Source of the DNA: Clostridia bacterium
Lineage (GTDB): Bacteria > Bacillota > Clostridia > Oscillospirales > Acutalibacteraceae
Assembly (NCBI GenBank): GCA_900752115.1
Contig: CAADUC010000112.1
Coordinates: 1 to 24,424, forward strand
DNA: 24,424 nt
Direction: 5' to 3'
The notes under the pieces were generated by a model that did no database searches, was not told the DNA's origin, and was given only the letters and a program-made list of their open reading frames with translations. The position numbers and the translations under genes were made by a program. Positions 629 to 23,412 of the stretch are shown piece after piece (position 1 is the first letter of the stretch; each line of letters starts with the position of its first letter).

Positions 629-707
629 GCAAGCATAGGGAGTGTAGCCACACTCCCGCAAAGCACCTGTCTGTGCTTTGCTTGTTGGGATAATCCCAAA
701 CCCTTAT
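629..707 (+). other. Structured non-coding element, copy 1 (upstream of mobC)
   Basis: Three hairpins lie in 79 nt. Stem A is GGGAGTGT (638-645)/ACACTCCC (650-657) with loop AGCC. Stem B is GCAAAGCAC (658-666)/GTGCTTTGC (673-681) with loop CTGTCT. Stem C is TTGGGAT (685-691)/ATCCCAA (693-699). An outer helix CAAGCA (630-635)/TGCTTG (679-684) can close around A and B if B is shortened. The same element recurs inverted at 12798-12890 with flanks nearly unchanged and stem B replaced by a different but still paired sequence. It lies between a terminator and the mobC ribosome site. It could be a 5' leader RNA, an oriT-type relaxase site, or a DNA operator or single-strand promoter; the sequence alone does not decide. 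Confidence 0.7.
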
Positions 708-732: not shown

Positions 733-1062
733 ATGGCAAACCGAACGCGGAATATCGTGCTGCGCGTTCCTGTGACTGCCGAGGAACGGGCAATGATCGA
801 GCGTAAAATGCAGCAGATGGGAACGGGCTGTTTTTCCGTTTATGCGCGGAAAATGCTCATAGACGGCTATGTGATCCGGCTGGATTACAGCGACGTGAAA
901 GCAATGACCGCCGAGCTGCAAAAAATCGGCACAAACATCAATCAGATTGCGAAGCGCGTGAACGCTACGGGAACGCTCTATGCGCAGGACATTGAGGACA
1001 TCAAGGGGGCGATGGCGGAGATATGGCAATTACAAAGATCCATCCTATCAAAAGCACCTTGA
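733..1062 (+). CDS. mobC: MobC-family mobilisation protein (relaxosome accessory)
   Basis: This 109-residue protein has a ribbon-helix-helix-like N-terminus (TRNIVLRVPVTAEERAMIERKM) followed by the MobC family signature around residues 55-95 (ELQKIGTNINQIAKRVNATG). MobC proteins bind oriT and help the relaxase reach its nick site. AAAGGA at 717-722 serves the ATG at 733. The 3' end overlaps the relaxase start by 40 nt, so the two are translated together. It follows directly after the structured element at 629-707, which makes that element a candidate binding site. Family assignment is firm; binding to this DNA is inference. Confidence 0.9.
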   Translation: MANRTRNIVLRVPVTAEERAMIERKMQQMGTGCFSVYARKMLIDGYVIRLDYSDVKAMTAELQKIGTNINQIAKRVNATGTLYAQDIEDIKGAMAEIWQLQRSILSKAP

Positions 1063-2357
1063 AAAAAGCCATTGACTACATCGTTGATCCTGCAAAGACC
1101 GACGATAAGCTGCTGGTGTCCTCGTTCGGCTGCGCCGTGGAAACCGCAGACCTTGAGTTTGAAAAAACACGGCTGCTTGCTATGCAGAAAGGCAACAATC
1201 TCGCTCACCATCTGATACAGGCCTTTGAGCCGGGTGAGGTCAGCTATGCGCAAGCCCACGAGATCGGGCGGCAGCTTGCCGATGAAATCCTCGGCGGCAA
1301 GTATGAGTATGTCATTGCTACTCACATCAACAAGGAGCATTGCCATAACCATATTATTTTCTGTGCCGTGGATTTTGCGGAGCATAAGAAGTACATTTCC
1401 AACCGCAAAAGCTACGCGCAGATCCGCCGTGTCAGCGACAGACTATGCCGGGAAAACGGGCTGTCCGTTGTCGCGCCCGGCGCGGAGCGCGGCAAGCAGT
1501 ATGCCGAATGGGACGCGCAGCGGAAAGGGACAAGCTATAAGCAAAAGCTAAAAATCGCCATCGACAGGCTCATTCCCATTTCCAAAGACCTTGACGACCT
1601 CCTGCGTCGGTTGGAAGCCGAGGGGTATGAAATCAAACGAGGAAAGTATATCTCATTCCGCGCTCCCAGTCAGGAGCGATTTACCCGTGCAAAGACGTTG
1701 GGTGAAGCTTACACCGAGGAAGCCATAGCCGAACGCATCAAGGGCAAGGTCATTCTGAAAATGCCAAAGCCGGAGCGCGGCAGCGTGTCGCTACTGATCG
1801 ACATTGAAAACTGCATCAAGGCGCAGCAATCCGCAGGCTATGAACGCTGGGCAAAAATTGAAAATCTGAAACGCGCTGCCCGCACAATGGTATTTCTCGA
1901 CCAGCACGGCGTTTCCCGCTATACCGATTTGGAGCAGAAGATCACAGAGCTTCAGGACAGCAATGAGCAAGCTGCCGCTGCGCTGAAAACAGCGGAACGC
2001 CGCCTGTCTGATCTGGCGCTGCTGATAAAGCATACCGCCACCTACAAAGAGCTAAAACCGCTGTATAGCGAATACAAAAAATCCCGTGATAAGGAAAAGT
2101 ATCTGCGCGGACGTGAGCGTGAAATCATTCTCTTTGAAGCGTCGGCGCGGGCGCTGAAAGCGGCGGGCGTCGGTGATAAACTCCCCGACCTTGCCAAGCT
2201 ACGCGAGGAATATTCCAGACTGTCCGAAGAAAAGGATCGGCTGTACGCTGAGTACGGAAGCCTGAAAAAGCGTATGCGGGAATACGATGCCGTCAAGCAG
2301 AACATCGACAGCATCCTGTCCCCCAATCGTGGGCAGGAACAGGACAAAGCCTTGTAG
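1023..2357 (+). CDS. MOBP-type relaxase (mobilisation nuclease)
   Basis: This 444-residue relaxase would nick oriT, attach to the 5' end and lead the strand into the recipient. Residues 1-150 form the relaxase/mobilisation nuclease domain: a candidate catalytic tyrosine is Y19 (AIDYIVDP), and the metal-binding histidine cluster is THINKEHCHNHIIF with H101, H106, H108 and H110. A basic middle section (about 150-260) precedes a long charged helical, probably coiled-coil, region (about 270-435). The ATG at 1023 lies inside mobC. The domain order matches relaxases of Tn1549-like ICEs. The nick site is not directly identifiable; the stretch 560-732 upstream of mobC is the obvious place to look. 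Confidence 0.93.
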   Translation: MAITKIHPIKSTLKKAIDYIVDPAKTDDKLLVSSFGCAVETADLEFEKTRLLAMQKGNNLAHHLIQAFEPGEVSYAQAHEIGRQLADEILGGKYEYVIATHINKEHCHNHIIFCAVDFAEHKKYISNRKSYAQIRRVSDRLCRENGLSVVAPGAERGKQYAEWDAQRKGTSYKQKLKIAIDRLIPISKDLDDLLRRLEAEGYEIKRGKYISFRAPSQERFTRAKTLGEAYTEEAIAERIKGKVILKMPKPERGSVSLLIDIENCIKAQQSAGYERWAKIENLKRAARTMVFLDQHGVSRYTDLEQKITELQDSNEQAAAALKTAERRLSDLALLIKHTATYKELKPLYSEYKKSRDKEKYLRGREREIILFEASARALKAAGVGDKLPDLAKLREEYSRLSEEKDRLYAEYGSLKKRMREYDAVKQNIDSILSPNRGQEQDKAL

Positions 2358-2372
2358 TTTCTCTGACATTCG

Positions 2373-2399
2373 CACATTATTTTCAAATAATTTAATGTG
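2373..2399 (+). promoter_or_regulatory. Distal AbiE operator palindrome (decayed promoter duplicate)
   Basis: Arms CACATTA (2373-2379) and TAATGTG (2393-2399) flank a 13-nt spacer. The same arms and spacing recur exactly 54 bp downstream, about five helical turns away, so both sites lie on one face of the DNA. The copy includes a degraded promoter: CTGACA at 2363-2368 and AATAAT at 2386-2391 sit where the downstream copy has TTGACA and TATAAT. AbiEi antitoxins studied elsewhere repress their own promoter through paired inverted repeats, which fits. Confidence 0.75.
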
Positions 2400-2416
2400 T
2401 GTTCGTCGTTTCGTGG

Positions 2417-4325: not shown

Positions 4326-4476
4326 AAGCAAGCGCAAAGTCACGGCTTAGAGTGCCTGTATGCCTTGCTGAGAGCGGCTTTACAGCGCGGGAAACGCAAA
4401 GGTCGTATGTTTCCCTGCCAGTTATGAAAAACGAGTTTGAAAGCGTGACAAATGAGATTGAAAGGAATGATTGTAT
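4326..4476 (+). other. Intergenic stretch between membrane protein and PIN gene
   Basis: It holds a 7-bp inverted repeat GGGAAAC (4389-4395)/GTTTCCC (4409-4415) with a 13-nt loop but no T tract. A short frame from the ATG at 4424 begins MKNEFESVTNEIERND and stops soon after entering the PIN gene out of frame. Its TTTGAAAGCGTGACA (4436-4450) reappears on the - strand in the 12.9-kb intergenic region. It may be a gene remnant at the junction of an inserted cargo gene. No convincing promoter is visible. Confidence 0.3.
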
Positions 4477-7555: not shown

Positions 7556-10500
7556 TCACTCCATTTCCAAAGCCTGCCGGATGCTCCGTTTGGCTTCCTG
7601 TTCCTTTTCTCGCTGCTGCGGCTTGCAGGACTGCGCACGATCCGCTTTGAGCTGCGCACGGATAGATGGCTTTTTGCCGTCCGGGTCGCGCTGCGGCGTT
7701 CTGCCGTCCTCGGCCTTGACCGCTGCGGCAAGCGCAGAGAGCGAAATCACCTCGCCGCGCTTTGCCTTTTCTTCCAGCTCGTCCACGGACGGGGTGTTGT
7801 TGATCTGTCCGTCAATCATGTTGTAGTTCTGTTCGGTGGACAGCTCCGCCGTGCGCATATAGTTTTCCTGCTCCCGCTGCTCGGCGGCAATGGCAAAGGC
7901 CTGTGTGCCGTTGCCCATGATAAGGTATTTGCCGTCATCGGTGCTGTGGTGATACCCATAGCCTGCGGCTTCCATCTGCTCACGGGTCATATTGGCAATG
8001 TGGAAGCTGCCGCGCGGCGTTGAAACGCGCTCCCCGGTCAGGTGGCCGTCAGGGACAGCGGATTCCTGCTGCTGGGCGCTGCGTTGCACGTCAATGGGCT
8101 TTTCCCCGGAGATAGGCTGAATACAGGAAATGTACCCTGCGGCGTAGTATGCGTTTTTGTTAAGCTGGCGCTGCCATGCGCCGACGCTGGGTGCCCAGCG
8201 AAAGCCGTTTGCTTTCAGCTCGTCCCGCGCTGCTTCATCCGGCTTGCCGTCAAAGAACACTTGCAGACGGTTATCTGCTTTGTTGGCTTCCACGCGCCCG
8301 CCGTCAAATTCCCATCCCGCAAAATTGGTTTCCTCATGCTGCCGCACCTGTTCAATGCGCCCACGGATGCGGCGGATCTCAGCGTTGTTGTTGGAGAGCA
8401 TATAGGCGGGGTACGGCCGGCTCTTATCCAGATGCCAGGACTGCGACATTTCCTGCTGCAATTTGGTGATCTGCTCCGGCGTCAGACTGGGGCAGCCCTC
8501 CAAAGTCTTATTCTTACGGAAATAGGCATTGACGGCTTTCATGGTTTCCTGCGCCGATTCCAGCTTGACGAGCTTGGCTTCCAGCTTTGCCGCTGCCTGC
8601 GGGTCGTCCATGCTGATACCGCCCATGCCTGTGCTGCGGATCTTATCCAAAATTCCCTGAACATCCTGCCATTCCTGCATATTGCGGTCACGGGCGGCGT
8701 TTTGCTTCTCTTTCTTGCGAACAGGGAAATTGCTGCCGCCTGCAACGAGGATCGAGGGAACACGGGCTTCAATGGCATAGTGGTCGTTCAGATTTTCCGC
8801 CAGCTTGCGGGCGTAGGTGTCCAGCAGCGCGTCAATTTTCTCATGGTACATGGGATCGACGCGCTCTTTCTGCCGCTGTGCAATCGCCGCTGCCTGATCC
8901 ACCATCTGCCGATATTCGGCGGTTGCGCTGCCTGCGGCGTAGTCGCGGTAGCTGTTTGCATCGTTGGCACGTCGGGCAGCGCCCTCATTGATGGTGTAAT
9001 ACCTGACGGCGGCTTGCTCCGGCGCGGTATCTGCGGGCAGCGTTTCCTCCGGCTGCTCCTGTACGTCGGCGGGCTGCTCCTGCGGCTCGTAGCTATTGGC
9101 TGCATATTCCTCCACGGTCATGCCTGCGGCTTCGGCTTCCTGTGCAATCTCACTTTCCACATGGGCTTTGTATTCCTGAAGCTCTTTATCAAAATCAGAA
9201 AGCTGCGGCGGGTCGGGCAAGTGATAATCGCCCGCGTTCAGCTTTTCCCGGCAAGCGTCCACATGGGCAAGAACCGCATGAAAATATGCTGTCTGCTCCG
9301 GCGTCAGGGCTTCTCCATTTTCCAGCATATCCGCAGCGGTGCGCTCCTGCTCGGAGAGGTTGCAATGCAGCCGCATATACGGCACAAACTCGGTGAGAAG
9401 CATTTCGCGCTCGGCCTTGTCCTTTTCCCACGCTTCCGCGCCCTCGTTGTGCAGCACAAAGTTTTTCCAGTTTTCGTCCTTGGCGTAGTATTCGTGATAG
9501 GCTTGGATATGGTCGATCAGAGCGCCGTCCCCGTCGCCAAAGTCTTGCCGTCCCTCGTAGCTGTCACGTTCCCCGTGAAATGTGCAGTCAATGCGGAATT
9601 TGGTTTTATCGTACCAGCCGCCTGTGTAGCCCGGCTTCTCACGCTCGGAACGCTTTTCATCGTCCAGCGCCTTAAAGAGCGCGTCGGCACGGGCAAGCGG
9701 GAGCTGTTCACCCTCTTGCAGTTTATCGCTCTCGCTCCAAAGAATCGTCACGACGGGCTGTACCGCAGGATCAAGGGAGGGTGCTTCCTTGCCGGACACT
9801 TCCTCTTGGGCATGGAACATGGCAAGCTGTTCGTCGCTGGCATAGGTCAGGTCGTCAAACTCCAAATCGTTCAGTTCGCCTTGGATCAGCGCAGCCAGCG
9901 ATTCATACGGTCGGCTTTCAATTAGCACATCACCCAAATATTTTTCAATGCGGAAGTCCGTCAGGTTTGCGTATGCCTGAATGGGGATTTCATCATCCGT
10001 AACGGTCGTGTGTCCAATACCAACGGCGGACAAGTCGCTGAAATCTGCGCCGGAATGAAATTCTTCGCGGCAGTAATCGTCGATCAGCTTTTTCGCAAGC
10101 TCCAATTCGGCGCGTCCCCGTGCGGCGTCGCTCAGATGCAGAGAGTAAAGGTCGGAAGCAGAGGAAAAGCCGACGTTGTTGAAAACATAGTCCACATCAC
10201 TTTCTTTCAGCGCTCCGGCTGCATAGTAATTCTCCCGCGTGGGTGTCGGGCTTACGCTTCCGGATGCAATATCGTGATTCAAGCCCGTTTCCAAATGCGT
10301 GCAGATTTTTCCGTCCACCGCCAGCGACGCATAGTACCAGCCTATGTAACCGCTGCTTTTCTGATCTGCGCCGTCGTTGAACTCCACATTCAGCAGCGTG
10401 TAGGGCTTCAAGCCCTTTTCTGCGGCAATGGCATTGTCCTGAAGCTCGCGCTCTTTAAGGGCGGTATAAGCAGTTTCCTTTGCAATTCGGATGATTTCAG

Positions 10501-12778
10501 GGTTATACCGTACCAACGCGCTATCGACAAGCTCCTGCCGTACCTTTTTGGTTCTGGCTTTCCGCGTTATGTGGTTGCCCAAAAACAGAGAGCTGCCATT
10601 ATCAAAGCGAATGGAAATATCACTTGTGCCGCGCCATTTTCCCGTGCAGGGCGAGGTTTCAATCGTGCCGGACGTGCAGCCGAACGCCTGCGCGATCACG
10701 CCGATTTTCTCCTGCATGGAGAGCGTTTCGTACTGTTTGGCAATTTCAACAGCCTGTTTCTGTAACTCTGTCAGCGGTCGTTCCGCTGGTGGGGCGTCAA
10801 CCTGTGCTTCCTGCTGTGCGGCCTGCTCCGGCTGTAAAAACTCCGGCACTTCGGTATAGCCGCCGCGATCCAGATAGTGCGCCGTTTTCTGTTCTCCGCG
10901 ATGCAGCACAATGACATCGGACATGGAAAGGCTATGCCCGGTAAAATCCTGCGGCCTGTCCATATTGAAGTGAACAAAAATGTCCTCCAGCGTGTCCGTG
11001 TCGGAGAGGGGCGCGGTATAGACCAGCTCATAATTTTCGCGGTCAACCCGCAGTCCGGCGGCCTTTACCTGTTCCAGCGGCTCAAATCGGAGATCCCGCG
11101 TTGCATCGCCGTCTTTGAGCTGATAGATAGAAAAAGTATTCTCCGGCACATCCTGCGCAGCAGTCTGTTCCTGCTCTGCGGTGTGCTGCGCCTGAAGCTC
11201 TGCAAAATGCCCCTCGATTTCAGAAATAAGCTCGCTGGCGGCGATGCGAATGGTTTCAAGGGATGCTTTCAGCTCCTTAATATTGCGGCCGCTGCTCCAC
11301 CCGGCAACGTAGCCAAAGGAGTAGTCCGACGTGTCCAGTCCGAAATGCTGGCACACCGTATAGGCGACGCTTTCCGCCTGCACCTCGCGGGTGCTGCGGT
11401 CAGGGCGCTCCGCCTGCTCCGGCGCGTTCAGGTCAATATCGTGCAGCTTGGCATGGGCAATCTCATGGATTGCCGTCTTGATGGTTTGCAGCTCGCTCAT
11501 GCCGTCGTCAATGGCAATGCGCTTTTCTGCAAGGTCATAATAGCCGTGTGCGTTGCCGTCGATTTTTTCAAGCGTCACAGGAACGGGAGAGGTCAGCTTC
11601 AAGGCTCTCCAAAAATCTTCATACTGTTCCACATTGCCCGTGAGCGCGTCCACGGCAATGTCGGGAAGCTCCTTGCCCTCGGTCTGGCTTACATCGAATA
11701 CCGACACCACCTTGAACGCCGGAATCGTCACCTCCTGCTGCTCCGTGACGGGCTTACCGTCTGCGCCGATCACAGGTTGCCCGGTGTCCGGGTCAGTTTT
11801 CACCACATCCTTTTTGATTTTATAAGGTGCGGGCGCAAGGATTTTGATGCTCTTTTCGCCGGATTTGACATGGCGTTCAAATTCGTCGCGCCACTTTCCA
11901 TAGCCTGCAACAAGGGATGCGTCCGGCTTCTGCATGACGATCAGCAGCGTATTGTTCAGGCTGTAATTGTGGAAGCGGGACATGGCTTTCAGATAATCCC
12001 GATACCGTTCACTTTCAAAAACCTCCTGTACGCCCTGTTCCAGATGCTCGGTGATCTCCTTGATTCTGCCTTGTGTGTCGGTGGCGTTCAGCACCAGCGG
12101 ACGCACGGGGATTGGCTCTGTGGGCAGCGCCGCGCCCTGCGGCAGCTCGTCCATATCCCGCTGGGGGCTGGGCTGCGCAGTCAGGCGATATTCCTGCGGC
12201 ACTTGGTTGGCTTTGTACCACTCCGCATAATCGTTGCCGTTATTGTAGACATAGCCATAATCGGTGAAAATGCCGCGATCCTCTTTGACCGCTTCGCGCC
12301 CATAGCTCTTGTAATCAAAGAACCTCTTGGCAGCGTCCGGCAATTCCAGCTCGTCCAGATCGTCAATGAGATAATGCCCGTAATCGTCGGAATTGTGTAC
12401 GGCGGGATAAAGCCAGTAGCAGTCCAGATTGTGCGTCAGGTTGATTAAGTCCGCCGCGCTTGCCGCATGGTCGCCATACTGTGCGGCAGCGGCAAACTTG
12501 TCGCGTTCCTCGTCGCTGCGCTGGGTGAGCAGCGCGGCAAGATAGTTCAAATCGTCCAGACTTTCGCCGGGCTGCAAGGCTTCGCTCCACCCGTCCAAAG
12601 AGGATTGATAGGCAGATACCTGATACTGTTCCGTGTCGCTCCCGTCTACGCCCAGCCGTTCAAAAACAGCGTTCATCGTTTCGGCATCGGTAGGCAGCGA
12701 TACCCATTCCGCAACAGGCGTTTCCTCGGTGTGCCGTGCGGTGTTGATAAGATATACTTCCAAAAGGTGTTCGTCCAC
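7556..12778 (-). CDS. Giant multi-domain anti-restriction protein (ArdA-ArdC-YodL fusion)
   Basis: This 1740-residue protein is built from mobile-element protection modules. Residues about 5-180 resemble ArdA, an acidic DNA mimic that blocks type I restriction (EVYLINTARHTEETPVAEWV onward). Residues about 238-370 resemble the ArdC N-terminal ssDNA-binding domain (HNYSLNNTLLIVMQKPDASL). A metallopeptidase follows with HEIAH (438-442) and a likely third ligand E469. A YodL-like domain spans about 549-648. Further parts resemble large polyvalent-protein (LPD) domains (about 675-1140), a DUF3849-like region (about 1255-1390) and a DUF4316-like C-terminus (about 1578-1693), ending in PSIRAQLK (1704-1711). 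I start at the GTG at 12778 because AGGAG lies 7 nt ahead; an in-frame ATG at 12799 has no ribosome site and overlaps the structured element. No membrane segment is seen. Confidence 0.88.
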   Translation of the reverse strand: MDEHLLEVYLINTARHTEETPVAEWVSLPTDAETMNAVFERLGVDGSDTEQYQVSAYQSSLDGWSEALQPGESLDDLNYLAALLTQRSDEERDKFAAAAQYGDHAASAADLINLTHNLDCYWLYPAVHNSDDYGHYLIDDLDELELPDAAKRFFDYKSYGREAVKEDRGIFTDYGYVYNNGNDYAEWYKANQVPQEYRLTAQPSPQRDMDELPQGAALPTEPIPVRPLVLNATDTQGRIKEITEHLEQGVQEVFESERYRDYLKAMSRFHNYSLNNTLLIVMQKPDASLVAGYGKWRDEFERHVKSGEKSIKILAPAPYKIKKDVVKTDPDTGQPVIGADGKPVTEQQEVTIPAFKVVSVFDVSQTEGKELPDIAVDALTGNVEQYEDFWRALKLTSPVPVTLEKIDGNAHGYYDLAEKRIAIDDGMSELQTIKTAIHEIAHAKLHDIDLNAPEQAERPDRSTREVQAESVAYTVCQHFGLDTSDYSFGYVAGWSSGRNIKELKASLETIRIAASELISEIEGHFAELQAQHTAEQEQTAAQDVPENTFSIYQLKDGDATRDLRFEPLEQVKAAGLRVDRENYELVYTAPLSDTDTLEDIFVHFNMDRPQDFTGHSLSMSDVIVLHRGEQKTAHYLDRGGYTEVPEFLQPEQAAQQEAQVDAPPAERPLTELQKQAVEIAKQYETLSMQEKIGVIAQAFGCTSGTIETSPCTGKWRGTSDISIRFDNGSSLFLGNHITRKARTKKVRQELVDSALVRYNPEIIRIAKETAYTALKERELQDNAIAAEKGLKPYTLLNVEFNDGADQKSSGYIGWYYASLAVDGKICTHLETGLNHDIASGSVSPTPTRENYYAAGALKESDVDYVFNNVGFSSASDLYSLHLSDAARGRAELELAKKLIDDYCREEFHSGADFSDLSAVGIGHTTVTDDEIPIQAYANLTDFRIEKYLGDVLIESRPYESLAALIQGELNDLEFDDLTYASDEQLAMFHAQEEVSGKEAPSLDPAVQPVVTILWSESDKLQEGEQLPLARADALFKALDDEKRSEREKPGYTGGWYDKTKFRIDCTFHGERDSYEGRQDFGDGDGALIDHIQAYHEYYAKDENWKNFVLHNEGAEAWEKDKAEREMLLTEFVPYMRLHCNLSEQERTAADMLENGEALTPEQTAYFHAVLAHVDACREKLNAGDYHLPDPPQLSDFDKELQEYKAHVESEIAQEAEAAGMTVEEYAANSYEPQEQPADVQEQPEETLPADTAPEQAAVRYYTINEGAARRANDANSYRDYAAGSATAEYRQMVDQAAAIAQRQKERVDPMYHEKIDALLDTYARKLAENLNDHYAIEARVPSILVAGGSNFPVRKKEKQNAARDRNMQEWQDVQGILDKIRSTGMGGISMDDPQAAAKLEAKLVKLESAQETMKAVNAYFRKNKTLEGCPSLTPEQITKLQQEMSQSWHLDKSRPYPAYMLSNNNAEIRRIRGRIEQVRQHEETNFAGWEFDGGRVEANKADNRLQVFFDGKPDEAARDELKANGFRWAPSVGAWQRQLNKNAYYAAGYISCIQPISGEKPIDVQRSAQQQESAVPDGHLTGERVSTPRGSFHIANMTREQMEAAGYGYHHSTDDGKYLIMGNGTQAFAIAAEQREQENYMRTAELSTEQNYNMIDGQINNTPSVDELEEKAKRGEVISLSALAAAVKAEDGRTPQRDPDGKKPSIRAQLKADRAQSCKPQQREKEQEAKRSIRQALEME

Positions 12779-12793
12779 GTCTGCGCTCCTTTC
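12776..12793 (-). promoter_or_regulatory. Ribosome site deciding a GTG start for the giant gene
   Basis: On the - strand GAAAGGAG is followed by CGCAGAC and then GTG (12778-12776), an ideal 7-nt spacing. The in-frame ATG 21 nt upstream directly follows hairpin C of the structured element and has no complement to 16S rRNA ahead of it. Confidence 0.75.
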
Positions 12794-12797
12794 TGAC

Positions 12798-12890
12798 ATA
12801 AGGGTTTGGGACTATCCCAACAAGCAATCGCCGCCCGGTCTGTGCCGGACGGCGATTTTTGGGAGTTGTAGCCACACTCCCTATGCTTGC
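12798..12890 (-). other. Structured non-coding element, copy 2 (upstream of the giant gene)
   Basis: Read on the - strand, this 93-nt segment begins GCAAGCATAGGGAGTGT and ends CCCAAACCCTTAT, as copy 1 at 629-707 does. Stem A is GGGAGTGT/ACAACTCCC with loop GGCT and one bulged A. Stem B (12826-12833 with 12850-12857, plus 12835-12838 with 12845-12848) has no sequence in common with stem B of copy 1 yet is fully paired. Stem C is TTGGGA/TCCCAA with a single A-to-G change in its centre. CAAGCA and TGCTTG can close the structure. It lies immediately before the ribosome site of the anti-restriction gene, just as copy 1 lies before mobC. On the opposite strand stem B followed by ATTTTT could act as a terminator. 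Confidence 0.7.
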
Positions 12891-12910: not shown

Positions 12911-12967
12911 TTATCTCCGTAAAATGCGTTCTGTCACGCTTTCAAAGCCGCTTTTCGCAGTTTCCAT
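12911..12967 (-). CDS. Possible 18-residue leader peptide or gene remnant
   Basis: An ATG at 12967 opens METAKSGFESVTERILRR and stops at TAA (12911-12913), about 20 nt before the structured element. The core TTTGAAAGCGTGACA coding FESVT is repeated at 4436-4450 in front of the PIN gene. No good ribosome site precedes it. It could be a leader peptide, a remnant of a lost gene, or chance. Confidence 0.2.
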   Translation of the reverse strand: METAKSGFESVTERILRR

Positions 12968-13032: not shown

Positions 13033-13401
13033 CTAAACCGTGACGCACCGAGCCTTTGCCCGCTGGCGGCGCTTGCGCTCGGCGGCGTTGTGCCGGGCAG
13101 CATAGGGCGCACAGCGGTCACAGTATTTTGCACGGTTGCTGCGGGCGGGAAAGGGCTTGCCGCACAGCTCGCATTTCTTTCGGGTGTCCGCCGTGGTTGC
13201 AAGATCTGCGCACAGCTCCCGGTCTGCGGGCAGCACTGCTTCCCGGAAGTATCGGCAGAGCAGCGAATAGCTGATGGCCTGCACACAGACGCACGGCTCG
13301 CCGTCGTCCAGCAGCAGACAGCATCCGCGCACATTGTTGGCGCAATGGCAGCGGGTCAGCTTTTTCACTCTGCGATGCTGCGCGTCATTCAGCCGGATCA
13401 T
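13033..13401 (-). CDS. Cysteine-rich VLP-domain protein
   Basis: This 122-residue protein has 13 cysteines. The first half has CHC (18-20), CC (27-28), CVC (37-39), C49 and C64; the second half holds a CxxC...CxxC zinc-ribbon-like unit (C77, C80, C94, C97) followed by an arginine/lysine-rich helix (AERKRRQRAKAR). It matches the small cysteine-rich VLP-domain proteins that sit next to topoisomerase III in Clostridia ICEs. Zinc binding and nucleic-acid contact are likely from the residues but untested. The start overlaps the TopB stop as ATGA (13398-13401), so it is coupled to TopB. The structured leader and giant gene follow after 254 nt. Confidence 0.82.
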   Translation of the reverse strand: MIRLNDAQHRRVKKLTRCHCANNVRGCCLLLDDGEPCVCVQAISYSLLCRYFREAVLPADRELCADLATTADTRKKCELCGKPFPARSNRAKYCDRCAPYAARHNAAERKRRQRAKARCVTV

Positions 13402-15476
13402 TTTCTCTGCTCGATACGGTAATTCACATACTTCTCTCCCGTATCACACAGCAGCACCGTCCCGTCATAGGTCTTGCCCGTGCGCTCAGAGTACAGCCCC
13501 TTGACTTTCGCCTTGCCGTCCTTTAGGAGCGCGGCGGCGATCTTCTTGGAAAAGACGCTTCTCCGGCTTTCAAAGAACTTGTCATTCTTCCACATGACAA
13601 AGCGGCAGGAGCGGTCAGAGCAGTAGAAATTCTTCTTGCCCTCATAGACAGGGCTTTTGCAGCGGGGGCAGATGCCGACTGCTTCCTTTTCCGGCGCGAA
13701 CAGCTTTTTGCCGTCCTCGGTGATGTGGGAATACCGCTTCACCAGCTCCCGCGTCATATCCTCGATTCCCTGCATGAAGCTCTGCGGGTCGTCGCTGCCC
13801 TTGGCAATCTCCGTCAGGCGGGTTTCCCATTCAGCGGTGAGCAGCGGCGATTTCAGCATATCCGGCAGAATGACAGCGAGATTGATGCCGTCCTTGGTCG
13901 GTACAAGACTTTTGCCCTTGCGCTCGACAAATCCGGCAGAGAGCAGCTTTTCGATCATCGCTGCCCGTGTTGCCGGAGTTCCCAGCCCTTGCCGTTCCGC
14001 ATCCTCCGGCATATCCTCCTTGCCCGCGTTCTCCATTGCGGACAAAAGCGAATCCTCGGTGTAGGGCTTGGGCGGCGTGGTATAATGCTCGGAAACAGAA
14101 GCCGTGACCGCTTCAAAAATCTGCCCCTCGGCAAGCTCCGGCAGCGCCGCATCCTCTGCGCTGTCCTCGTCCGGCTTGGCTTTGAGCACAGCGCGGAAAC
14201 GGGCGTCAATGTCTTTCCAGCCTGCCATCAGGATCGTTTTGCCCTTGGCGGTGAACGGCTTGCCGCCGCAGTCAAAGACCGCCGTAACGGTTTCATATTC
14301 CTGCGGCGCTGCAACGGCGCACAGCAGCTTGCAGCAGACAAGGGACATCAGCTTCTTTTCGCTCTCCGGCAGTCCGTCAAAGCCGTTGCCTGCAAAGGCC
14401 GTCGTGGGGATAATCGCGTGATGGTCGGAAACCTTGGCGCTGTTGATGACGCGCCCGATCTCCGGCATAAGCTCCGCGCCCTGCATAAAGGGAAGCACAG
14501 GCAGCAGCGCCGCAGCAAGGTCAGTTGCCGTCTGCGCCATATCCTCGGTGAGATAATTGCTGTCGGTGCGGGGATAGGTCAGGAAGCGCTTTTCATACAG
14601 GCTTTGTGCATAGTCAAGGGTTTGCTTGGCGGTAAAGCCGTAAACGCGGTTGGCTTCCCTCTGCAAGGAGGTAAGGTCAAAGAGCTTCGGCGGCAGCGCA
14701 GTTTTCTTCTCCTTTTTGAGAGAAACGCAAACGGCCTGCGACGCTTCGCAAGCCGTTTTCAGCGCATCCGCAGCGGCAGCGTCGGAAATGCGTTCACTTT
14801 CCGCGTCCACGCCGCCGCAGCCGATATGTACGATGTGGTATTTTTCCTTGTGGAACATCGTAATTTTTCCGTCGCGCTCCACCAGCAGATTCAGCGTAGG
14901 CGAAAGCACCCGTCCCACATTCAGGGTCTTGTGATACAGCACGGAGAAAAGCCGCGTCGCATTGATGCCCACAAGCCAGTCTGCCCGTGCACGGCACAGC
15001 GCCGATTGATACAGCGCGTCATATTCCGTTCCGGCTCTGCGTTCGGCAAAGCCCTCGCGGATGGAGCTGTCCTCCATTGAGGAAATCCAAAGGCGGGAAA
15101 AGGGCTTCGTGCATCCGGCCTGCTCATAGACAAAGCGGAAAATCAGCTCACCCTCGCGCCCGGCGTCACAGCCGTTCACCACCTCGGAAATGTCGCTGCG
15201 GTGCAGCAGCTCTTTCAGAACGGCAAGCTGCTTTTCTTTGCCGGGAGTAGGGGCATATTTCCACGTCTGCGGCAGAATGGGAAGATCCTCATAGCGCCAC
15301 TTTTTGTATCGCTCGTCATAGCTGCCCGCGTCTGCCATGCTGATAAGATGTCCGATGCACCATGACACCAGCAGTCCGTCGCCGGAAAGATACCCATCCT
15401 TTTGCTCCGCAGCGCCCAGCGCAAGGGCAACGGTCTTTGCCACGGAGGGCTTTTCACAAATAATCAAAACACTCAT
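13398..15476 (-). CDS. topB: DNA topoisomerase III (type IA)
   Basis: This 692-residue type IA topoisomerase passes single strands through a transient break and would resolve transfer or replication intermediates. The Toprim domain shows E8 (IICEKPSVAKT) and CDAGREGELIFRF (D104, E108), the form usual in Gram-positive TopB. The catalytic tyrosine is Y301 in FLTYPRTDS. The C-terminus carries a four-cysteine zinc element (CPRCKSP...CSDRSC) and a final basic domain. The ATG at 15476 overlaps the DUF4366 stop as ATGA. ICE-borne topB copies are common in this class of element and distinct from chromosomal topA. The full set of motifs suggests an active enzyme. Confidence 0.95.
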   Translation of the reverse strand: MSVLIICEKPSVAKTVALALGAAEQKDGYLSGDGLLVSWCIGHLISMADAGSYDERYKKWRYEDLPILPQTWKYAPTPGKEKQLAVLKELLHRSDISEVVNGCDAGREGELIFRFVYEQAGCTKPFSRLWISSMEDSSIREGFAERRAGTEYDALYQSALCRARADWLVGINATRLFSVLYHKTLNVGRVLSPTLNLLVERDGKITMFHKEKYHIVHIGCGGVDAESERISDAAAADALKTACEASQAVCVSLKKEKKTALPPKLFDLTSLQREANRVYGFTAKQTLDYAQSLYEKRFLTYPRTDSNYLTEDMAQTATDLAAALLPVLPFMQGAELMPEIGRVINSAKVSDHHAIIPTTAFAGNGFDGLPESEKKLMSLVCCKLLCAVAAPQEYETVTAVFDCGGKPFTAKGKTILMAGWKDIDARFRAVLKAKPDEDSAEDAALPELAEGQIFEAVTASVSEHYTTPPKPYTEDSLLSAMENAGKEDMPEDAERQGLGTPATRAAMIEKLLSAGFVERKGKSLVPTKDGINLAVILPDMLKSPLLTAEWETRLTEIAKGSDDPQSFMQGIEDMTRELVKRYSHITEDGKKLFAPEKEAVGICPRCKSPVYEGKKNFYCSDRSCRFVMWKNDKFFESRRSVFSKKIAAALLKDGKAKVKGLYSERTGKTYDGTVLLCDTGEKYVNYRIEQRK

Positions 15477-16493: not shown

Positions 16494-16949
16494 TTAGCAA
16501 CTCCTTTCATTCAACCGCTTTTCGTAGCGGTATTTCATTTGCGCCGGATAGAGCGGCTGGGCAGGACGGCGGCTGCCTGTCCATGCCTTGCCGCCCGCAA
16601 GTCCGGCGTTCGTCCAGCCTGCGGCGCGTAGGCTCGCGCCGCTTTCGGTGTCCAAGGTGTAGGTGATAATTTTTCGGTAGCCCATCGCCCGCGCAGCCCG
16701 TGCCGCTGCCGCATAGAGGATGCTGCAAGCGTTTTTCGTGCCATCGCTGCACAAGCGGTTGACTTCCAACGTAAAGCCGTCGTCCAAATAGCGGCTCACA
16801 GGCCGTCCCACAATGGCAACGGCACAAAGCCGCCCATTTTCAGCGCAGCCAATGGAAAACTTGTGTCCGGCGACGGGCTTGTGGTGGCGGTGATGCTGCC
16901 GCACAAACTCGTTCGCCTGCGCAAGAGAAACAGGGATCAGCGTCAGCAT
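16494..16949 (-). CDS. XF1762-family protein (GNAT-like fold)
   Basis: This 151-residue protein matches the XF1762 family by its ends and core: VRQHHRHHKPVAGHKFSIG near the N-terminus, VGRPVSRYLDDGFTLEVNRL in the middle, and YRKIITYTLDTESGASLRAAGW toward the end. The arrangement resembles N-acetyltransferase-like proteins found in phages and ICEs, in which the R/Q-rich loop would bind acetyl-CoA. The substrate is not known. AAGGAGG lies 6 nt before the ATG at 16949. It is inserted between the wall hydrolase and DUF4315, an unexpected place for a small-molecule enzyme; modifying DNA, wall or a transfer protein are all possible. Confidence 0.78.
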   Translation of the reverse strand: MLTLIPVSLAQANEFVRQHHRHHKPVAGHKFSIGCAENGRLCAVAIVGRPVSRYLDDGFTLEVNRLCSDGTKNACSILYAAAARAARAMGYRKIITYTLDTESGASLRAAGWTNAGLAGGKAWTGSRRPAQPLYPAQMKYRYEKRLNERSC

Positions 16950-16960
16950 AGCCGCCCTCC

Positions 16961-19135
16961 TTAGTTATACGGCGGTCTGGCGTAGGCGTAGAAATGCGCC
17001 TGCCAATAGCTGCTGTTCAGGTTGGAATAGGAGATCGGATCTCCGCAATGGATCATCATGGAATTGCCGACGTAGATTCCCACATGGCTAACGCCCGGAG
17101 TATCGTATGTCCCGACGAAAAACACGAGGTCGCCCGGCTGCGGGTTGGAAACAGGGGTGGAAATGTTGTAAAGTCCCTGTGCGCCCAGCCTGCCCGTATT
17201 GCACACGCCGCTGTTTGTCAGCACCCAGCTCACAAAGCCGGAGCAGTCAAAGGAGGTAGACGGGCTGCTGCCGCCCCACACATAGGGGTATCCCAAATAC
17301 TTTTCTGCTTCCGTGATAACGGCGGCAAAGGTTTCGTCCTCCATTGCAGAGGGCGGAATTTCATATCCCTCCGGGCGGTTTGTGATGTACTTCGGGATGT
17401 ACTCGCTATCCCCGAACAGCTCCGGCTTGTTGCCCAGCACCGACATATACAGCGCATATTTGGACAGCGTTTCTTCGTCCATGATATAGACGGGGAGATG
17501 CGAGAGATCGAAGTTTTCCAGCTCGACGGTGCAGATGTAGTAGTTATACGGAACTTCTACCTCATACTCATTGCCCTCGCTGTCTGTTCGGGTAACGGTG
17601 CGGTAGCGCACCTCGGTCACGACGGTTTCCGTGAGAATATATTGCTTTTCAAAGAGCATTTGCAGCGTCCCGCGCACCTCGCTTGCCGTCCATGCGCCGT
17701 CATGCAGCGCGGAGAGGATCGATGCCAGAACATAGGGATCGTGCTTGATCTCGTCAAGGTCATAGTGGTATTCGTCGTAATCATGGGTGCGTTCATAGGT
17801 GTCGAGATATTCTTGCAGCTCGGCTTCCAGCGCACAGTAGGCGGCTTCGGCGGCGAGAATGTCCGCGTCCTCCGACTGATAGCTGGATGCAGCCACACCT
17901 CCGCCAGCCGCGCCCACCAGCGCAGAGCAGGATTGCAGCCCGCCGATCAGCATGACAATCAGCAGGAAACCAGCCAGAACGACCAGCACACCTTTCCAAT
18001 GGCGGGCAACGAACTCCGCTGCTTCCTTTGCCTTTTCTGCCGCTTTTTTCGCTGCCGTCGCGGTGGCTTCTGCGGTTTTTTCGGCACCTTTGGCGGTTGC
18101 CTGCGCGGTGCTGCCCGCAGCCTTTGCCGTTCGCGCAGCCTTGGCATATTCACGCTTTAGACGCTGCTTCTGGAAAAAGCGGTTGAGCGGATTGCTGGAG
18201 AGCATTTCAGGGTTATCATGCAGCACCTTTTGATAGTGGTATTCTGCATTGGCATTTACCGCTTTGTGCTCGGCCTTTTCCGCAGCGCGGTAGGGTTTCA
18301 GCTTGCGGTGACGGCGCTCCCAGCGAATTGCACCGCCTGCGCCATGCTCGGCAAGTTCTTCGGCTTTATGCCCGCTTTCCACGCCGACGTTTTCATGCTC
18401 GACCTCATGGATTTTTCCGTGCGCCTGTACTGCGACCTCCCGCAGCGGACGACCTAACGGATTCGGTTTCAGCTTGGGCGGGGACTTATCCACGGTATCA
18501 AAGCGCAGCTTGGCCTTGGCTGTGCCGCTGGCTTCATCAAAGACACGCTCCTTGCGCAGCACCCGTTTCTTGGGGATCGCTGCCTGTGCCGCATCCAGCT
18601 TGTCGGCGGCCTTTTCCGCACAGTGGATATGCTTGTGTAGCTCCGGCGCAGCGCGTTCTTCCTCGGAAAATTGCAAACAGGATGCAGAATACCGCTGCTG
18701 CGCCGCATCGCGGGACATCCGCGCCGTCTGCCGTGCCTTGTGTGCGTCATGCTCTGCGGCCGCACGGTCAAAGAACTTTTCCGCTGTACCGCCCGGCGCA
18801 GCGGAAGTCGGAATGTCCTGCGGGATATTGGAAACGGGGCTGCCGCCCTGCGGCTGAAATGGCTCGGCGCTTGGCTGCTGCGGTTTGGGCTGCTCCTTTT
18901 CCGGCTCTTTTTGCTCCTGCGGGCGAAGCTGCCGCCCGTGCTTGGGGGCATCCTCTGCCGGATTCATAGGTGCGTCGCGTTTTCCCATCTGGACAGGCTG
19001 CCTATCCGGGGAAAGCTGCTTTTCCGCGTCGCGCTCGGAAATATGGATTTCTGCACCCGTGGTCTGATTGTCCAGCACCGCGCCATCGCGGGTCATACGC
19101 TGGGTGAGCTTATCGCGGGGCTTAAATTCTTTCAA
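16961..19135 (-). CDS. NlpC/P60 cell-wall hydrolase of the conjugation apparatus
   Basis: This 724-residue protein joins a long cytoplasmic region to an outer peptidase. Residues 1-375 are basic, proline/glutamine- and then alanine/lysine-rich and probably extended or helical (AKGAEKTAEATATAAKKAAE). A membrane helix spans about 381-403 (GVLVVLAGFLLIVMLIGG). A linker domain follows (about 420-600). The C-terminal NlpC/P60 domain has C631 in FDCSGF, H684 in GVSHVGIY and H696 as likely third residue. It would cut peptidoglycan cross-bridges to let the channel through (a VirB1-like role). The start is TTG at 19135, overlapping the methylase stop as TTGA, with GGAGG 9 nt ahead. Confidence 0.9.
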   Translation of the reverse strand: MKEFKPRDKLTQRMTRDGAVLDNQTTGAEIHISERDAEKQLSPDRQPVQMGKRDAPMNPAEDAPKHGRQLRPQEQKEPEKEQPKPQQPSAEPFQPQGGSPVSNIPQDIPTSAAPGGTAEKFFDRAAAEHDAHKARQTARMSRDAAQQRYSASCLQFSEEERAAPELHKHIHCAEKAADKLDAAQAAIPKKRVLRKERVFDEASGTAKAKLRFDTVDKSPPKLKPNPLGRPLREVAVQAHGKIHEVEHENVGVESGHKAEELAEHGAGGAIRWERRHRKLKPYRAAEKAEHKAVNANAEYHYQKVLHDNPEMLSSNPLNRFFQKQRLKREYAKAARTAKAAGSTAQATAKGAEKTAEATATAAKKAAEKAKEAAEFVARHWKGVLVVLAGFLLIVMLIGGLQSCSALVGAAGGGVAASSYQSEDADILAAEAAYCALEAELQEYLDTYERTHDYDEYHYDLDEIKHDPYVLASILSALHDGAWTASEVRGTLQMLFEKQYILTETVVTEVRYRTVTRTDSEGNEYEVEVPYNYYICTVELENFDLSHLPVYIMDEETLSKYALYMSVLGNKPELFGDSEYIPKYITNRPEGYEIPPSAMEDETFAAVITEAEKYLGYPYVWGGSSPSTSFDCSGFVSWVLTNSGVCNTGRLGAQGLYNISTPVSNPQPGDLVFFVGTYDTPGVSHVGIYVGNSMMIHCGDPISYSNLNSSYWQAHFYAYARPPYN

Positions 19136-20085
19136 TGGGTATCACCTCCGATCCGTTCCCGTGCAAGGGAACAAAACTCCGTGTTCAGTTCAATGCCGAT
19201 GTAATGCCTGCCGTGCCGCTTCGCCGCAAGCCCCGTTGTGCCGCTGCCCATGAATGGATCAAGGACAATGCCGCCCTTGGGACAGCCCGCCAGAATACAG
19301 GTTTCCGCCAGCAGGGGCGGATAAGCGGCAAAATGCCCGCCCTTGTAAGGCACAGTGTTGATAAACCACACATCGCGCTTTGCCCGGACGGGTGAGATCA
19401 TGTCGTCGGTAATACTGCCTTTTTTCCTCGGCTTATTGATATTCTGTGTCTGCGGCTGTCCCGGAACGGGTGAGGAATACTTGCCCACGCCGCGCCCTGC
19501 CTTTTTGCGCAGGGCGGTCGTGGGGGCAATGGGTTCGGCAATGGCAAGCCAGTCATAGAAATAACGCCTGCTCTTGGTTAGCATGAAAATATGCTCATGG
19601 CTGCGGGTGCAGCGGTCTTTGGTACTCTCCGGCATGGGGTTTCCCTTTGCCCAGATCACGTCATTACGCAGATACCAGCCGTCGGCGCGGAGCGCAAAGG
19701 CCAGCATCCACGGAATCCCGATCATGTCCTTTTGCTTGCAGCCCCGCACCGCTTGGCAGAGAGAAATATTCTGCCCGTTGCGTCCCTGCGGATATTTGGG
19801 GTCGCGGGTATCGCCCTTGCTGCCTGTGCCGCAATAGCTGTCCGCAATATTTACCCACAAGGTTCCATCCGGGCGCAGCACCCGGCGCACCTCGCGGAAT
19901 ACCGCTGTCAGCCGCGAAATGTATTCCTCCGGCGTGGCTTCCCGCCCGATCTGTGCGTCCATGCCGTAATCCCTCAGCCCGTAGTAGGGCGGCGAGGTCA
20001 CGCAGCAATGAACGCTGCTCTCCGGCAGGGCTTTCAGCACATCCAGACTGTCGCCGCAGAGAATGGTATCAAGCTCCATCGTCAT
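19132..20085 (-). CDS. Orphan DNA methyltransferase, beta class (N4-C or N6-A)
   Basis: This 317-residue SAM-dependent DNA methyltransferase has catalytic motif IV TSPPYYGLRDYG (SPPY at 31-34) before SAM-binding motif I DPFMGSGTTG (276-285), the order of the beta class. SPPY is frequent in N4-cytosine enzymes but does not settle the target base. No restriction endonuclease gene lies nearby, so it is probably an orphan enzyme that marks the ICE against host restriction. The ATG at 20085 overlaps the VirB4 stop as ATGA, with GAGGTG 8 nt ahead, and its own stop overlaps the hydrolase start, so it is embedded within the transfer operon. Confidence 0.9.
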   Translation of the reverse strand: MTMELDTILCGDSLDVLKALPESSVHCCVTSPPYYGLRDYGMDAQIGREATPEEYISRLTAVFREVRRVLRPDGTLWVNIADSYCGTGSKGDTRDPKYPQGRNGQNISLCQAVRGCKQKDMIGIPWMLAFALRADGWYLRNDVIWAKGNPMPESTKDRCTRSHEHIFMLTKSRRYFYDWLAIAEPIAPTTALRKKAGRGVGKYSSPVPGQPQTQNINKPRKKGSITDDMISPVRAKRDVWFINTVPYKGGHFAAYPPLLAETCILAGCPKGGIVLDPFMGSGTTGLAAKRHGRHYIGIELNTEFCSLARERIGGDTH

Positions 20086-22848: not shown

Positions 22849-23412
22849 CTAACTCCTTTCCGCAAGCTGAATATCGCTTGCAATTTCATTGCCCCATGCG
22901 TCCCACCCCGGCGTTTTCTGACGGGCGAACAGCTCCACACGGGGCAGGTTGCCCATGAGCGCAAGAATTTTTTCCCGCGCTTCATCGGGCTTTTTGCTGT
23001 GCTGCTCAATAGGGGAAATAATAAACTGATGGATGCCCGCCGACTGCCGCTTGGGTTTCCCTTTCGTTGCCAGCAGACAGATTTCCGCGTTGCTGCGCGT
23101 CCAGTAGCCCATGCCGTAAAACCATGACGGACTTTTGCGGTTGCGTTTGAGCCAGACAAACGCCACGGTTTTATACCGAAAGCCCCATGCGCGGATCAGC
23201 CGCAGGGCTTCGGGAAGCTGCGGAAAGGTCGCCCAGAGGAACAGGGCGCAGTCTTTTGATGCCAGCTCCGGCACGGGCAGGGCGCAAAGCTCGTCAATGC
23301 TCATGGTGGGATAGTGATTTTCTGCCGCACCCTGTACCTTTCTCTGTTCATAGCGCCACGGCGGGTCTGCGTAAATGATATTATACGTTCCGATAGGCAA
23401 GCCCTCCGTCAA
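22849..23412 (-). CDS. MT-A70-family DNA N6-adenine methyltransferase
   Basis: This roughly 187-residue methyltransferase opens with NIIYADPPWRYE, the DPPW catalytic motif (16-19) of the MT-A70 family, and continues with family features such as CALFLWATFPQLPEAL and NAEICLLATKGKP. These enzymes methylate adenine N6 in DNA of phages and mobile elements. The start is uncertain: a TTG at 23412 overlaps the TrbL stop as TTGA, as in other junctions of this operon, but has no clear ribosome site, and GGAGG lies just after it. It is the second methylase in this operon and again without a nuclease partner; sheltering the ICE from restriction is the likely role. Confidence 0.88.
   Translation of the reverse strand: MTEGLPIGTYNIIYADPPWRYEQRKVQGAAENHYPTMSIDELCALPVPELASKDCALFLWATFPQLPEALRLIRAWGFRYKTVAFVWLKRNRKSPSWFYGMGYWTRSNAEICLLATKGKPKRQSAGIHQFIISPIEQHSKKPDEAREKILALMGNLPRVELFARQKTPGWDAWGNEIASDIQLAERS

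What the first reader, a model, noticed from the sequence alone, without database searches (positions are those of the whole stretch)
629..707. Duplicated structured element with a swapped but still paired hairpin, in front of both mobC and the anti-restriction gene
Seen directly: 629-707 (+) and 12798-12890 (-) share near-identical 5' (GCAAGCATAGGGAGTGT) and 3' (TTGGGATARTCCCAA, then ACCCTTAT) blocks, while the middle hairpin has no sequence similarity and yet is perfectly or nearly perfectly paired in both. Structure kept while sequence changes is the hallmark of a functional fold. Both copies sit at the same place, just before the ribosome site of an operon's first gene. Inference: it may be a regulatory leader RNA, an oriT (hairpins followed by a conserved nic-like block), or a folded single-strand promoter that fires when the transferred strand enters the recipient, as Frpo does on F-like plasmids. 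The last would explain a copy before the anti-restriction gene.
Basis: partly seen in the sequence, partly recalled or inferred. Interest (0 to 1): 0.82.

Follow-up and report, generated by a model that had tools for sequence, protein, structure and literature searches.

The report
Twin oppositely facing DNA transfer origins
The two look-alike folded DNA elements look like start sites for DNA transfer (oriT): one corresponds to the known start site of this family of gut-bacterial mobile elements, and the other is a matching second copy facing the opposite way beside an anti-restriction gene, whose job has not been tested.

Summary
In detail: two copies share outer blocks and differ in a middle hairpin that stays paired. 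Across 56 chosen relatives, 14 of 14 tested stem pairs show changes on both sides. The window is a Tn1549-type integrative conjugative element. The 5' block is the complement of the nic motif listed for Tn1549 (RYGCTTG|C), eight bases from hairpin 1; of five such motifs in the held part of a vanB element taken as Tn1549, only copy A's lies at about the listed place. So A is the oriT. In relatives the element also lies between converging genes, so it is not a leader RNA. Copy B is a complete second copy on the opposite strand. In 20 of 21 elements A and B share the hairpin-1 type (15 identical) while hairpin 2 differs, and the hairpin-1 core follows the DNA-binding strand of MobC. B is most likely a relaxosome site matched to A: a second oriT and/or a MobC-controlled switch for the anti-restriction gene. 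The single-strand-promoter idea is not supported: from either nic the anti-restriction gene enters last. The main novelty is the conserved, specificity-matched, inverted pair. Whether B is nicked is untested.

The parts
629..707 (+). Element A: oriT of the ICE (nic box, three hairpins, ACCC tail) before mobC
   Evidence: homologous to L003:20008
629..634 (-). nic box GCTTG|C on the - strand, predicted cut between 630 and 629; transferred strand leads leftwards
   Evidence: motif RYGCTTG|C listed for Tn1549 (PMC7755788 passage); sites in L003 listed; no cutting test
638..657 (+). hairpin 1 of A (GGGAGTGT-AGCC-ACACTCCC), specificity hairpin, 8 nt from nic
658..681 (+). hairpin 2 of A, variable in sequence
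680..685 (+). GCTTGT arm, can pair with the nic box GCAAGC
   Evidence: absent from both A and B in L166, L178, L184
685..699 (+). hairpin 3 of A (TTGGGA-TAA-TCCCAA), tail 700-707
733..1062 (+). mobC (NikA-like ribbon-helix-helix relaxosome protein)
   Evidence: PF21983 9.8e-14, PF05713 4e-11
1023..2357 (+). relaxase (MobA/VirD2 type)
   Evidence: PF03432 1e-35
12798..12890 (-). Element B: second oriT-type element, inverted relative to A, before the anti-restriction gene
12885..12890 (+). nic box of B on the + strand, predicted cut between 12889 and 12890; strand would lead rightwards
   Evidence: same motif as A; no cutting test
12861..12881 (-). hairpin 1 of B (same stem as A, one bulged base)
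12826..12860 (-). hairpin 2 of B, different in sequence from that of A
12806..12820 (-). hairpin 3 of B, tail 12805-12798
7556..12799 (-). ArdA-ArdC-M78-YodL-LPD25-DUF4316 polyvalent anti-restriction gene (listed ATG 12799; likely start GTG 12778)
   Evidence: Pfam; sequence
13398..15476 (-). DNA topoisomerase 3 gene; in 18 of 27 class-B relatives the nic box of B begins within 20 nt of the end of this reading frame, in the other 9 (window included) the VLP gene (here 13033-13401) lies between

Best explanation
A is the origin of transfer of a Tn1549-type ICE. MobC (NikA-like RHH) reads hairpin 1 in duplex DNA and helps the MobA/VirD2-type relaxase cut the strand opposite to mobC at GCTTG|C, eight bases from hairpin 1; hairpins 1-3 then lie at the end of the transferred strand that enters last. 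B is a complete second relaxosome site of the same specificity on the opposite strand, not a leader RNA or a single-strand promoter. Its most likely role is a second, oppositely directed oriT; MobC bound there may also adjust output of the anti-restriction gene in the donor. Shown by sequence: fold, compensatory change, nic motif, matched hairpin 1, opposite strands. Inferred: MobC contact at hairpin 1, cutting at A and at B, control of the anti-restriction gene.
For: A table gives the Tn1549 oriT as 28 bp at 22239-22266 with nic RYGCTTG|C (PMC7755788 passage). Of five RYGCTTGC sites in L003 from 8400 on, only A's lies 11.4 kb from the integrase stop, which fits the listed place if the element is about 33.8 kb with the integrase at its right end (both recalled). 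Fold and covariation. Context: 0 of 143 elements have a relaxase relative within 4 kb on the nic side (119 have that much sequence held), while classes A and C (67 elements, so defined) have one on the hairpin-3 side, on either strand. A/B hairpin 1: 15 of 21 identical, 20 of 21 same type by eye, 0 of 5000 partner shuffles of 18 distinct pairs as close; three further pairs, L166, L178 and L184, also match, one with a single base change. The hp1A-hp1B distance correlation, 0.87, is above that of either with any of four proteins (0.46-0.73). MobC beta strand: LRxPVT in 11 of 11 loci with core GTGT(A/G)GCCAC, KF(Y/R)VT in 22 of 22 with core GTACC; the other 8 of 41 class-A loci had another strand (4) or were not correctly extracted (4). 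Strands: 20 of 20 same-locus A-B pairs convergent; the 6 same-strand pairs all have different hairpin 1, as reported for loss of same-strand oriT pairs through the relaxase in staphylococcal plasmids (PMC4652767 passages).
Against: Nothing I saw tests nicking at B. B is absent at 9 of 35 topoisomerase-to-Ard junctions, 5 of these in loci that have an A. One of 21 pairs (L079) has unmatched hairpin 1. Hairpins 2 and 3 are also slightly closer within an ICE than between ICEs (20.7 against 22.4, and 5.3 against 7.8; 0 of 5000 shuffles each), and the four proteins correlate with one another at 0.75-0.94, so common descent of whole ICEs explains part of the match; all pairs may stem from one duplication. 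Two of five covariation measures were not above every shuffle (20 and 145 of 500), and the automatic consensus fold missed the outer pairs of hairpin 2. The Tn1549 relaxase is said to be cis-acting (PMC6856555 passage), which fits poorly with mobilisation of small elements in trans.
Confidence: 0.83

Rival explanations
1. B is only a MobC operator: MobC feeds back on both the mobC-relaxase operon (A) and the anti-restriction gene (B), and B is never nicked.
For: MobC of plasmid RA3 autoregulates its operon from a palindrome in the mobC promoter, the operon lying next to oriT (PMC4175270 abstract). ArdC-type polyvalent proteins are proposed to travel with the DNA, so they would be needed in the donor together with the relaxosome (PMC5512222 passages). 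Hairpin 1 follows the MobC beta strand.
Against: B keeps the nic box, hairpin 2 and hairpin 3, which an operator does not need. In 18 of 27 B the nic box begins within 20 nt of the topoisomerase frame's end, leaving little room for a promoter upstream. No sigma-70-like promoter was found at either copy, a weak test since shuffles average 0.1.
Confidence: 0.3
2. Structured leader RNA (cis-regulatory 5' UTR) of mobC and of the anti-restriction gene.
For: Both copies lie 5' of a ribosome site in the window; strong RNA folds; compensatory changes; tail-to-ribosome-site pairing in the window folds.
Against: In 11 of 26 class-C relatives the element lies between converging genes; in four small elements the next gene is 309-627 nt from the element's first base (a 100-aa ORF overlapping the element in L117 is taken as spurious). 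No Rfam match at gathering. Pairing of the tail with the ribosome site is only 2-3 bp in L003 A and L006 A, and in L006 the gene after B is annotated to start about 124 nt away. The A-B match tracks a DNA-binding protein.
Confidence: 0.04
3. Single-strand promoter (Frpo-like) that fires when the transferred strand enters the recipient.
For: Anti-restriction genes in plasmid leading regions often have such promoters (PMC11541004 passages).
Against: With the nic in the 5' block the anti-restriction gene is on the trailing side of both A and B, and for transfer from A its template is not the transferred strand. No -35/-10 match (weak test). The same element occurs beside other genes (only the ORFs given were scanned).
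Confidence: 0.03
4. A and B match only through concerted evolution (gene conversion) or shared ancestry, with no function at B.
For: Distances of all parts and proteins correlate across ICEs, and hairpins 2 and 3 are slightly closer within an ICE too.
Against: Within an ICE, hairpin 2 differs by 20.7 edits on average against 1.3 for hairpin 1 (not scaled for length, 35-42 against 24 letters), and B hairpin 2s resemble one another across hairpin-1 types more (13.7) than A and B of one type (19.3); for A the difference is small (18.0). So hairpin 1 changed in parallel in two separate sites.
Confidence: 0.1

Closest known systems
oriT of Tn1549 (OriTDB entry as quoted in PMC7755788; Tsvetkova et al. 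2010 not held, nothing seen)
   Same: A is its likely homologue: same nic motif, same hairpin 1 stem, same place before mobC and relaxase
   Different: The listed oriT is 28 bp, which would cover nic box plus hairpin 1; the second inverted copy before the polyvalent gene, present in that element too (L003:28037 -), is not in what I could read
pWBG749-family staphylococcal oriT and its mimics (PMC4652767 and PMC8136818, abstracts and passages)
   Same: Several inverted repeats beside the core, one of which (IR2) is swapped and sets specificity through an RHH protein (SmpO); carriers without a relaxase; two oriTs on opposite strands
   Different: Different core (CTTATGCTCTT); there, plasmids with several copies mostly carry different subtypes (58 of 67), here the two copies of one ICE mostly have the same specificity
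ICEclc with oriT1 and oriT2 recognised by one relaxase (PMC5714925 passage)
   Same: Two origins on one ICE served by one relaxase
   Different: MOBH relaxase in Pseudomonas; sequences not compared here; no link to an anti-restriction gene known to me
Frpo/ssi single-strand promoters (PMC11541004 passages)
   Same: Folded single-stranded DNA near anti-restriction genes
   Different: Position relative to nic; no promoter hexamers found; not in the leading region

Membership tests
Tn1549-type oriT (copy A) | nic motif RYGCTTG|C | tested here: met
   ATGCTTGC on the - strand at 636-629
Tn1549-type oriT (copy A) | same place as the listed oriT of Tn1549, before mobC | tested here: met
   by distance to the integrase gene in a vanB element on pMG2200 taken as Tn1549 (identity, length and map recalled), not on the Tn1549 record itself
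Tn1549-type oriT (copy A) | cut by the relaxase | not testable with these tools
   needs a nicking assay
Tn1549-type oriT (copy B) | nic box plus cognate hairpin 1 | tested here: met
   in the five loci found through A alone (L003-L006 by similarity to the A region, L061 because only A matched the pattern), 5 of 5 B have the exact box
Tn1549-type oriT (copy B) | supports transfer | not testable with these tools
   no experiment
cis-regulatory leader RNA | lies in the 5' UTR of a gene in relatives | tested here: not met
   class C and small elements
cis-regulatory leader RNA | match to a known Rfam family | tested here: not met
   for 580-760 one hit of 14.1 bits, E 0.038, against a gathering score of 180, is taken as chance
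Frpo-like single-strand promoter | promoter hexamers in the fold | tested here: not met
   (sigma-70 consensus only; weak test)
Frpo-like single-strand promoter | in the leading region with the transferred strand as template | tested here: not met
   geometry from the nic motif; inferred, no transfer experiment
MobC operator | binding by MobC | not testable with these tools
   association of beta strand and hairpin 1 only

The most novel reading that the evidence does not exclude
Tn1549-type ICEs keep two working origins of transfer of one specificity, facing opposite ways, so that either strand can be sent. The second one sits at the gene of the anti-restriction protein thought to travel with the DNA, tying relaxosome assembly to supply of that protein; the opposite orientation is enforced because same-strand copies would be deleted by the relaxase.
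Probability: 0.3. Interest if true: 0.7.

Novelty: new variant of a known kind. Interest (0 to 1): 0.5.

Why it matters
Tn1549-type elements carry cargo, including vancomycin resistance, among gut bacteria. A conserved second oriT-type site would change how their transfer direction, gene order on entry and relaxosome control are understood. The hairpin-1 code (MobC beta strand against hairpin core) would give a way to predict which small elements an ICE could mobilise.

Tried and rejected
Translational sequestering of the ribosome site by the CCCTT tail: seen in the window folds, only 2-3 bp in L003 A and L006 A. Intrinsic terminator: none at A; at B one weak match on the other strand, within shuffle expectation. 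Rfam: no match at gathering; a below-threshold hit dismissed. Phage records and E. coli genomes: no match of the queries given. Outer stem GCAAGC/GCTTGT as universal: rejected, since in L166, L178 and L184 A and B have both lost the GCTTGT arm. A second oriT in Tn1549-type elements in print: the listings showed none by title or abstract start, but the key 2010 paper is not held.

Rows and choices: one search used the window, L003-L007 and L038-L144, not L001, L002 or L008-L037. Of 49 class-D elements, 12 lie near a contig end or have a MobC, relaxase or topoisomerase relative nearby; 21 pairs, 18 distinct; 20 same-locus pairs, 19 with all four proteins, 16 distinct; 56 of 118 distinct elements, chosen by hand for near-equal length and variety; the search pattern fixed the nic box, the GCTTGTTGGG block and CCCAA, so only hairpins 1 and 2 count as a covariation test. 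One search used 80 of the 116 loci; one search repeated it on all 116: 119 sites, 71 with the full pattern, 100 with a hairpin-3-like stretch; two sites (L148, L183) look like chance 17-mers.

Full report
Observation. A runs 629-707 on +, B 12890-12798 on -. Each has GCAAGC, hairpin 1, hairpin 2, GCTTGT, hairpin 3 (TTGGGA...TCCCAA) and ACCCTTAT. Both fold better than all shuffles as RNA and as single-stranded DNA of the opposite strand. The window is a Tn1549-type conjugative element: MobC with NikA-like and MobC domains, MobA/VirD2-type relaxase, AbiE pair, ArdA-ArdC-YodL-LPD25 giant, topoisomerase, CD1107-like gene.

Relatives. Searching plasmid records with the A region matched 18 records, 14 of them Enterococcus. 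The one opened, pMG2200, has a vanB element that I take to be Tn1549 (name recalled) and that carries both copies. A pattern with only the nic box, GCTTGTTGGG and CCCAA fixed matched 50 of 394 genomes of the nearest held genome's order, and 16 of 87 and 33 of 247 of two families (overlapping sets); the reversed pattern matched in none. From 113 loci I extracted 143 elements: 41 before mobC/relaxase (class A), 27 after the topoisomerase gene (class B; 26 also before an Ard-type gene), 26 beside a relaxase gene that reads towards the element (class C), 49 with none of these in my windows (class D; 12 of them at contig ends or with such a gene nearby). A scan of named genomes for the exact 17-base 5' block gave 116 loci with 119 sites, most by title in gut Clostridia and Erysipelotrichaceae: 47 A, 26 B, 38 D, 8 at contig ends.

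Fold. In a 56-sequence alignment all 14 pairs tested in hairpins 1 and 2 have changes on both sides; 80.5% of cells pair against 57.6% after shuffling, and the covariation score is 0.520 against 0.187 shuffled and at most 0.310 slid; two of five measures were not above every shuffle. RNAalifold found hairpins 1 and 3 and the outer stem but not the outer pairs of hairpin 2. Among 63 distinct hairpin-1 20-mers, 78.6% of positions pair against 56.2% shuffled (highest 60.5%) and at most 53.2% slid. Of 118 distinct hairpin-2 regions, 88 have z below -2, mean -3.49. The sequences are related, so these numbers overstate independence.

What A is. A table in PMC7755788 (passage only) lists the Tn1549 oriT as 28 bp at 22239-22266 with nic RYGCTTG|C. 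The complement of the 5' block is ATGCTTGC, and hairpin 1 ends eight bases before the cut, as in other MOBP origins (recalled). In L003 from position 8400 on there are five such motifs; the one in A is 11.4 kb from the integrase stop, which fits the listed coordinate for a 33.8-kb element with the integrase at its right end (length and map recalled); the other four do not. So A is most probably the mapped oriT, and the transferred strand leads away from mobC.

Not a leader. In class C the relaxase gene ends 53-167 nt after hairpin 3, and in 11 of 26 an HTH gene ends within 60 nt before the element: there it lies between converging genes. No element of 143 has a relaxase relative within 4 kb on the nic side (119 have that much sequence held), as expected if transfer genes enter last. 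In L117, L046, L063 and L007 the next listed same-strand gene starts 309, 360, 627 and 336 nt from the element's first base (a 100-aa ORF overlapping the element in L117 is taken as spurious). L117 and L046 (Pfam) and L007 (annotation) have a serine recombinase next to the element. No relative of the Tn1549-type relaxase was found beside these four; other relaxase families were looked for only in the ORFs scanned and in the annotation of L007.

What B is. In 21 ICEs with both copies, hairpin 1 is identical in 15 and of one type in 20; the exception is L079. Partner shuffling of 18 distinct pairs never came as close (mean 1.3 edits against 6.1; 0 of 5000). Hairpins 2 and 3 were also closer than every shuffle, but by little for hairpin 2 (20.7 against 22.4). 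Three more pairs, L166, L178 and L184, match in hairpin 1, one with a single change, and in all three both copies have lost the GCTTGT arm. Hairpin-1 distances of A and B correlate at 0.87, above either with MobC, relaxase, Ard protein or topoisomerase; the proteins themselves correlate at 0.75-0.94. The MobC beta strand follows the hairpin-1 core in 33 of 33 loci with one of two common strands; 8 further class-A loci had another strand (4) or were not correctly extracted (4). With the staphylococcal precedent, where an RHH protein reads the swapped repeat (PMC8136818 abstract and passages), this says B is most likely seen by the same MobC as A. B is found at 26 of 35 topoisomerase-Ard junctions in loci chosen for having an element; the 9 without it include 5 with an A. 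A and B are on opposite strands in all 21. Elements on the same strand of one locus occur in 6 pairs, all with different hairpin 1. In staphylococcal plasmids, pairs were always on opposite strands and the authors suspect relaxase-mediated deletion of same-strand pairs (PMC4652767 passages); this fits a nickable B but rests on related cases.

Why beside the anti-restriction gene. Iyer et al. (PMC5512222 passages) propose that ArdC-type polyvalent proteins of conjugative elements such as Tn1549 are delivered with the DNA. They would then be made in the donor when the relaxosome forms, and a MobC-responsive site before both genes would coordinate them. This is inference. The single-strand promoter idea fails on geometry: the gene is on the trailing side of both nic boxes.

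Verdict. A is a homologue of the known Tn1549 oriT. B is a conserved, specificity-matched, inverted second copy: a new variant of a known kind. ICEclc is a precedent for two origins with one relaxase (PMC5714925 passage). Whether B is nicked, is an operator, or both is open.

Noticed in passing
   Followed up: partly
L117:14968, L046:5001, L063:5001, L007:16002, also L129:6460 and L144:1257: Small elements with an oriT-like element and cargo: TetR and flavodoxin-like (L117), AraC-GNAT and MATE (L046), ABC transporter (L063), two-component system and ABC transporter (L007), with a sigma70-like ORF further on; serine recombinase next to it in L117, L046 and L007. L129 has ORFs of similar sizes to L117 but was not scanned. 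L007, L063 and L144 have near-identical hairpin 2, but L007 has another hairpin-1 type, as if specificity had been switched.
   Followed up: partly
L048:5001/5334, L049:5001/5252, L050:14651/14993: Two oriT-like elements 250-340 bp apart, convergent, with different hairpin 1.
   Followed up: no
L166, L178, L184: Clostridium fessum, C. porci and Traorella massiliensis elements in which A and B have both lost the GCTTGT arm while keeping hairpin 1 and a hairpin-3-like stretch.
   Followed up: partly
window 4426-4450 (+) and 12932-12956 (-): A 25-base dispersed inverted repeat (TTTGAAAGCGTGACA core), one copy before the PIN-domain gene, one about 40 nt upstream of B.
   Followed up: no
window 2364-2407 and 2418-2461: 44-base direct repeat before the AbiEi/AbiEii pair, perhaps the AbiEi operator.
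   Followed up: no
window 16494-16949, 19132-20085, 22849-23412: A gene with a weak, below-cutoff Pfam hit to Mom and two methyltransferase-like genes inside the transfer region; the methyltransferase calls rest on my reading and, for the last, on annotation of relatives.
   Followed up: no
L081:1671-1756 (-): c-di-GMP-I riboswitch (Rfam) about 2.3 kb from an oriT-like element.
   Followed up: no
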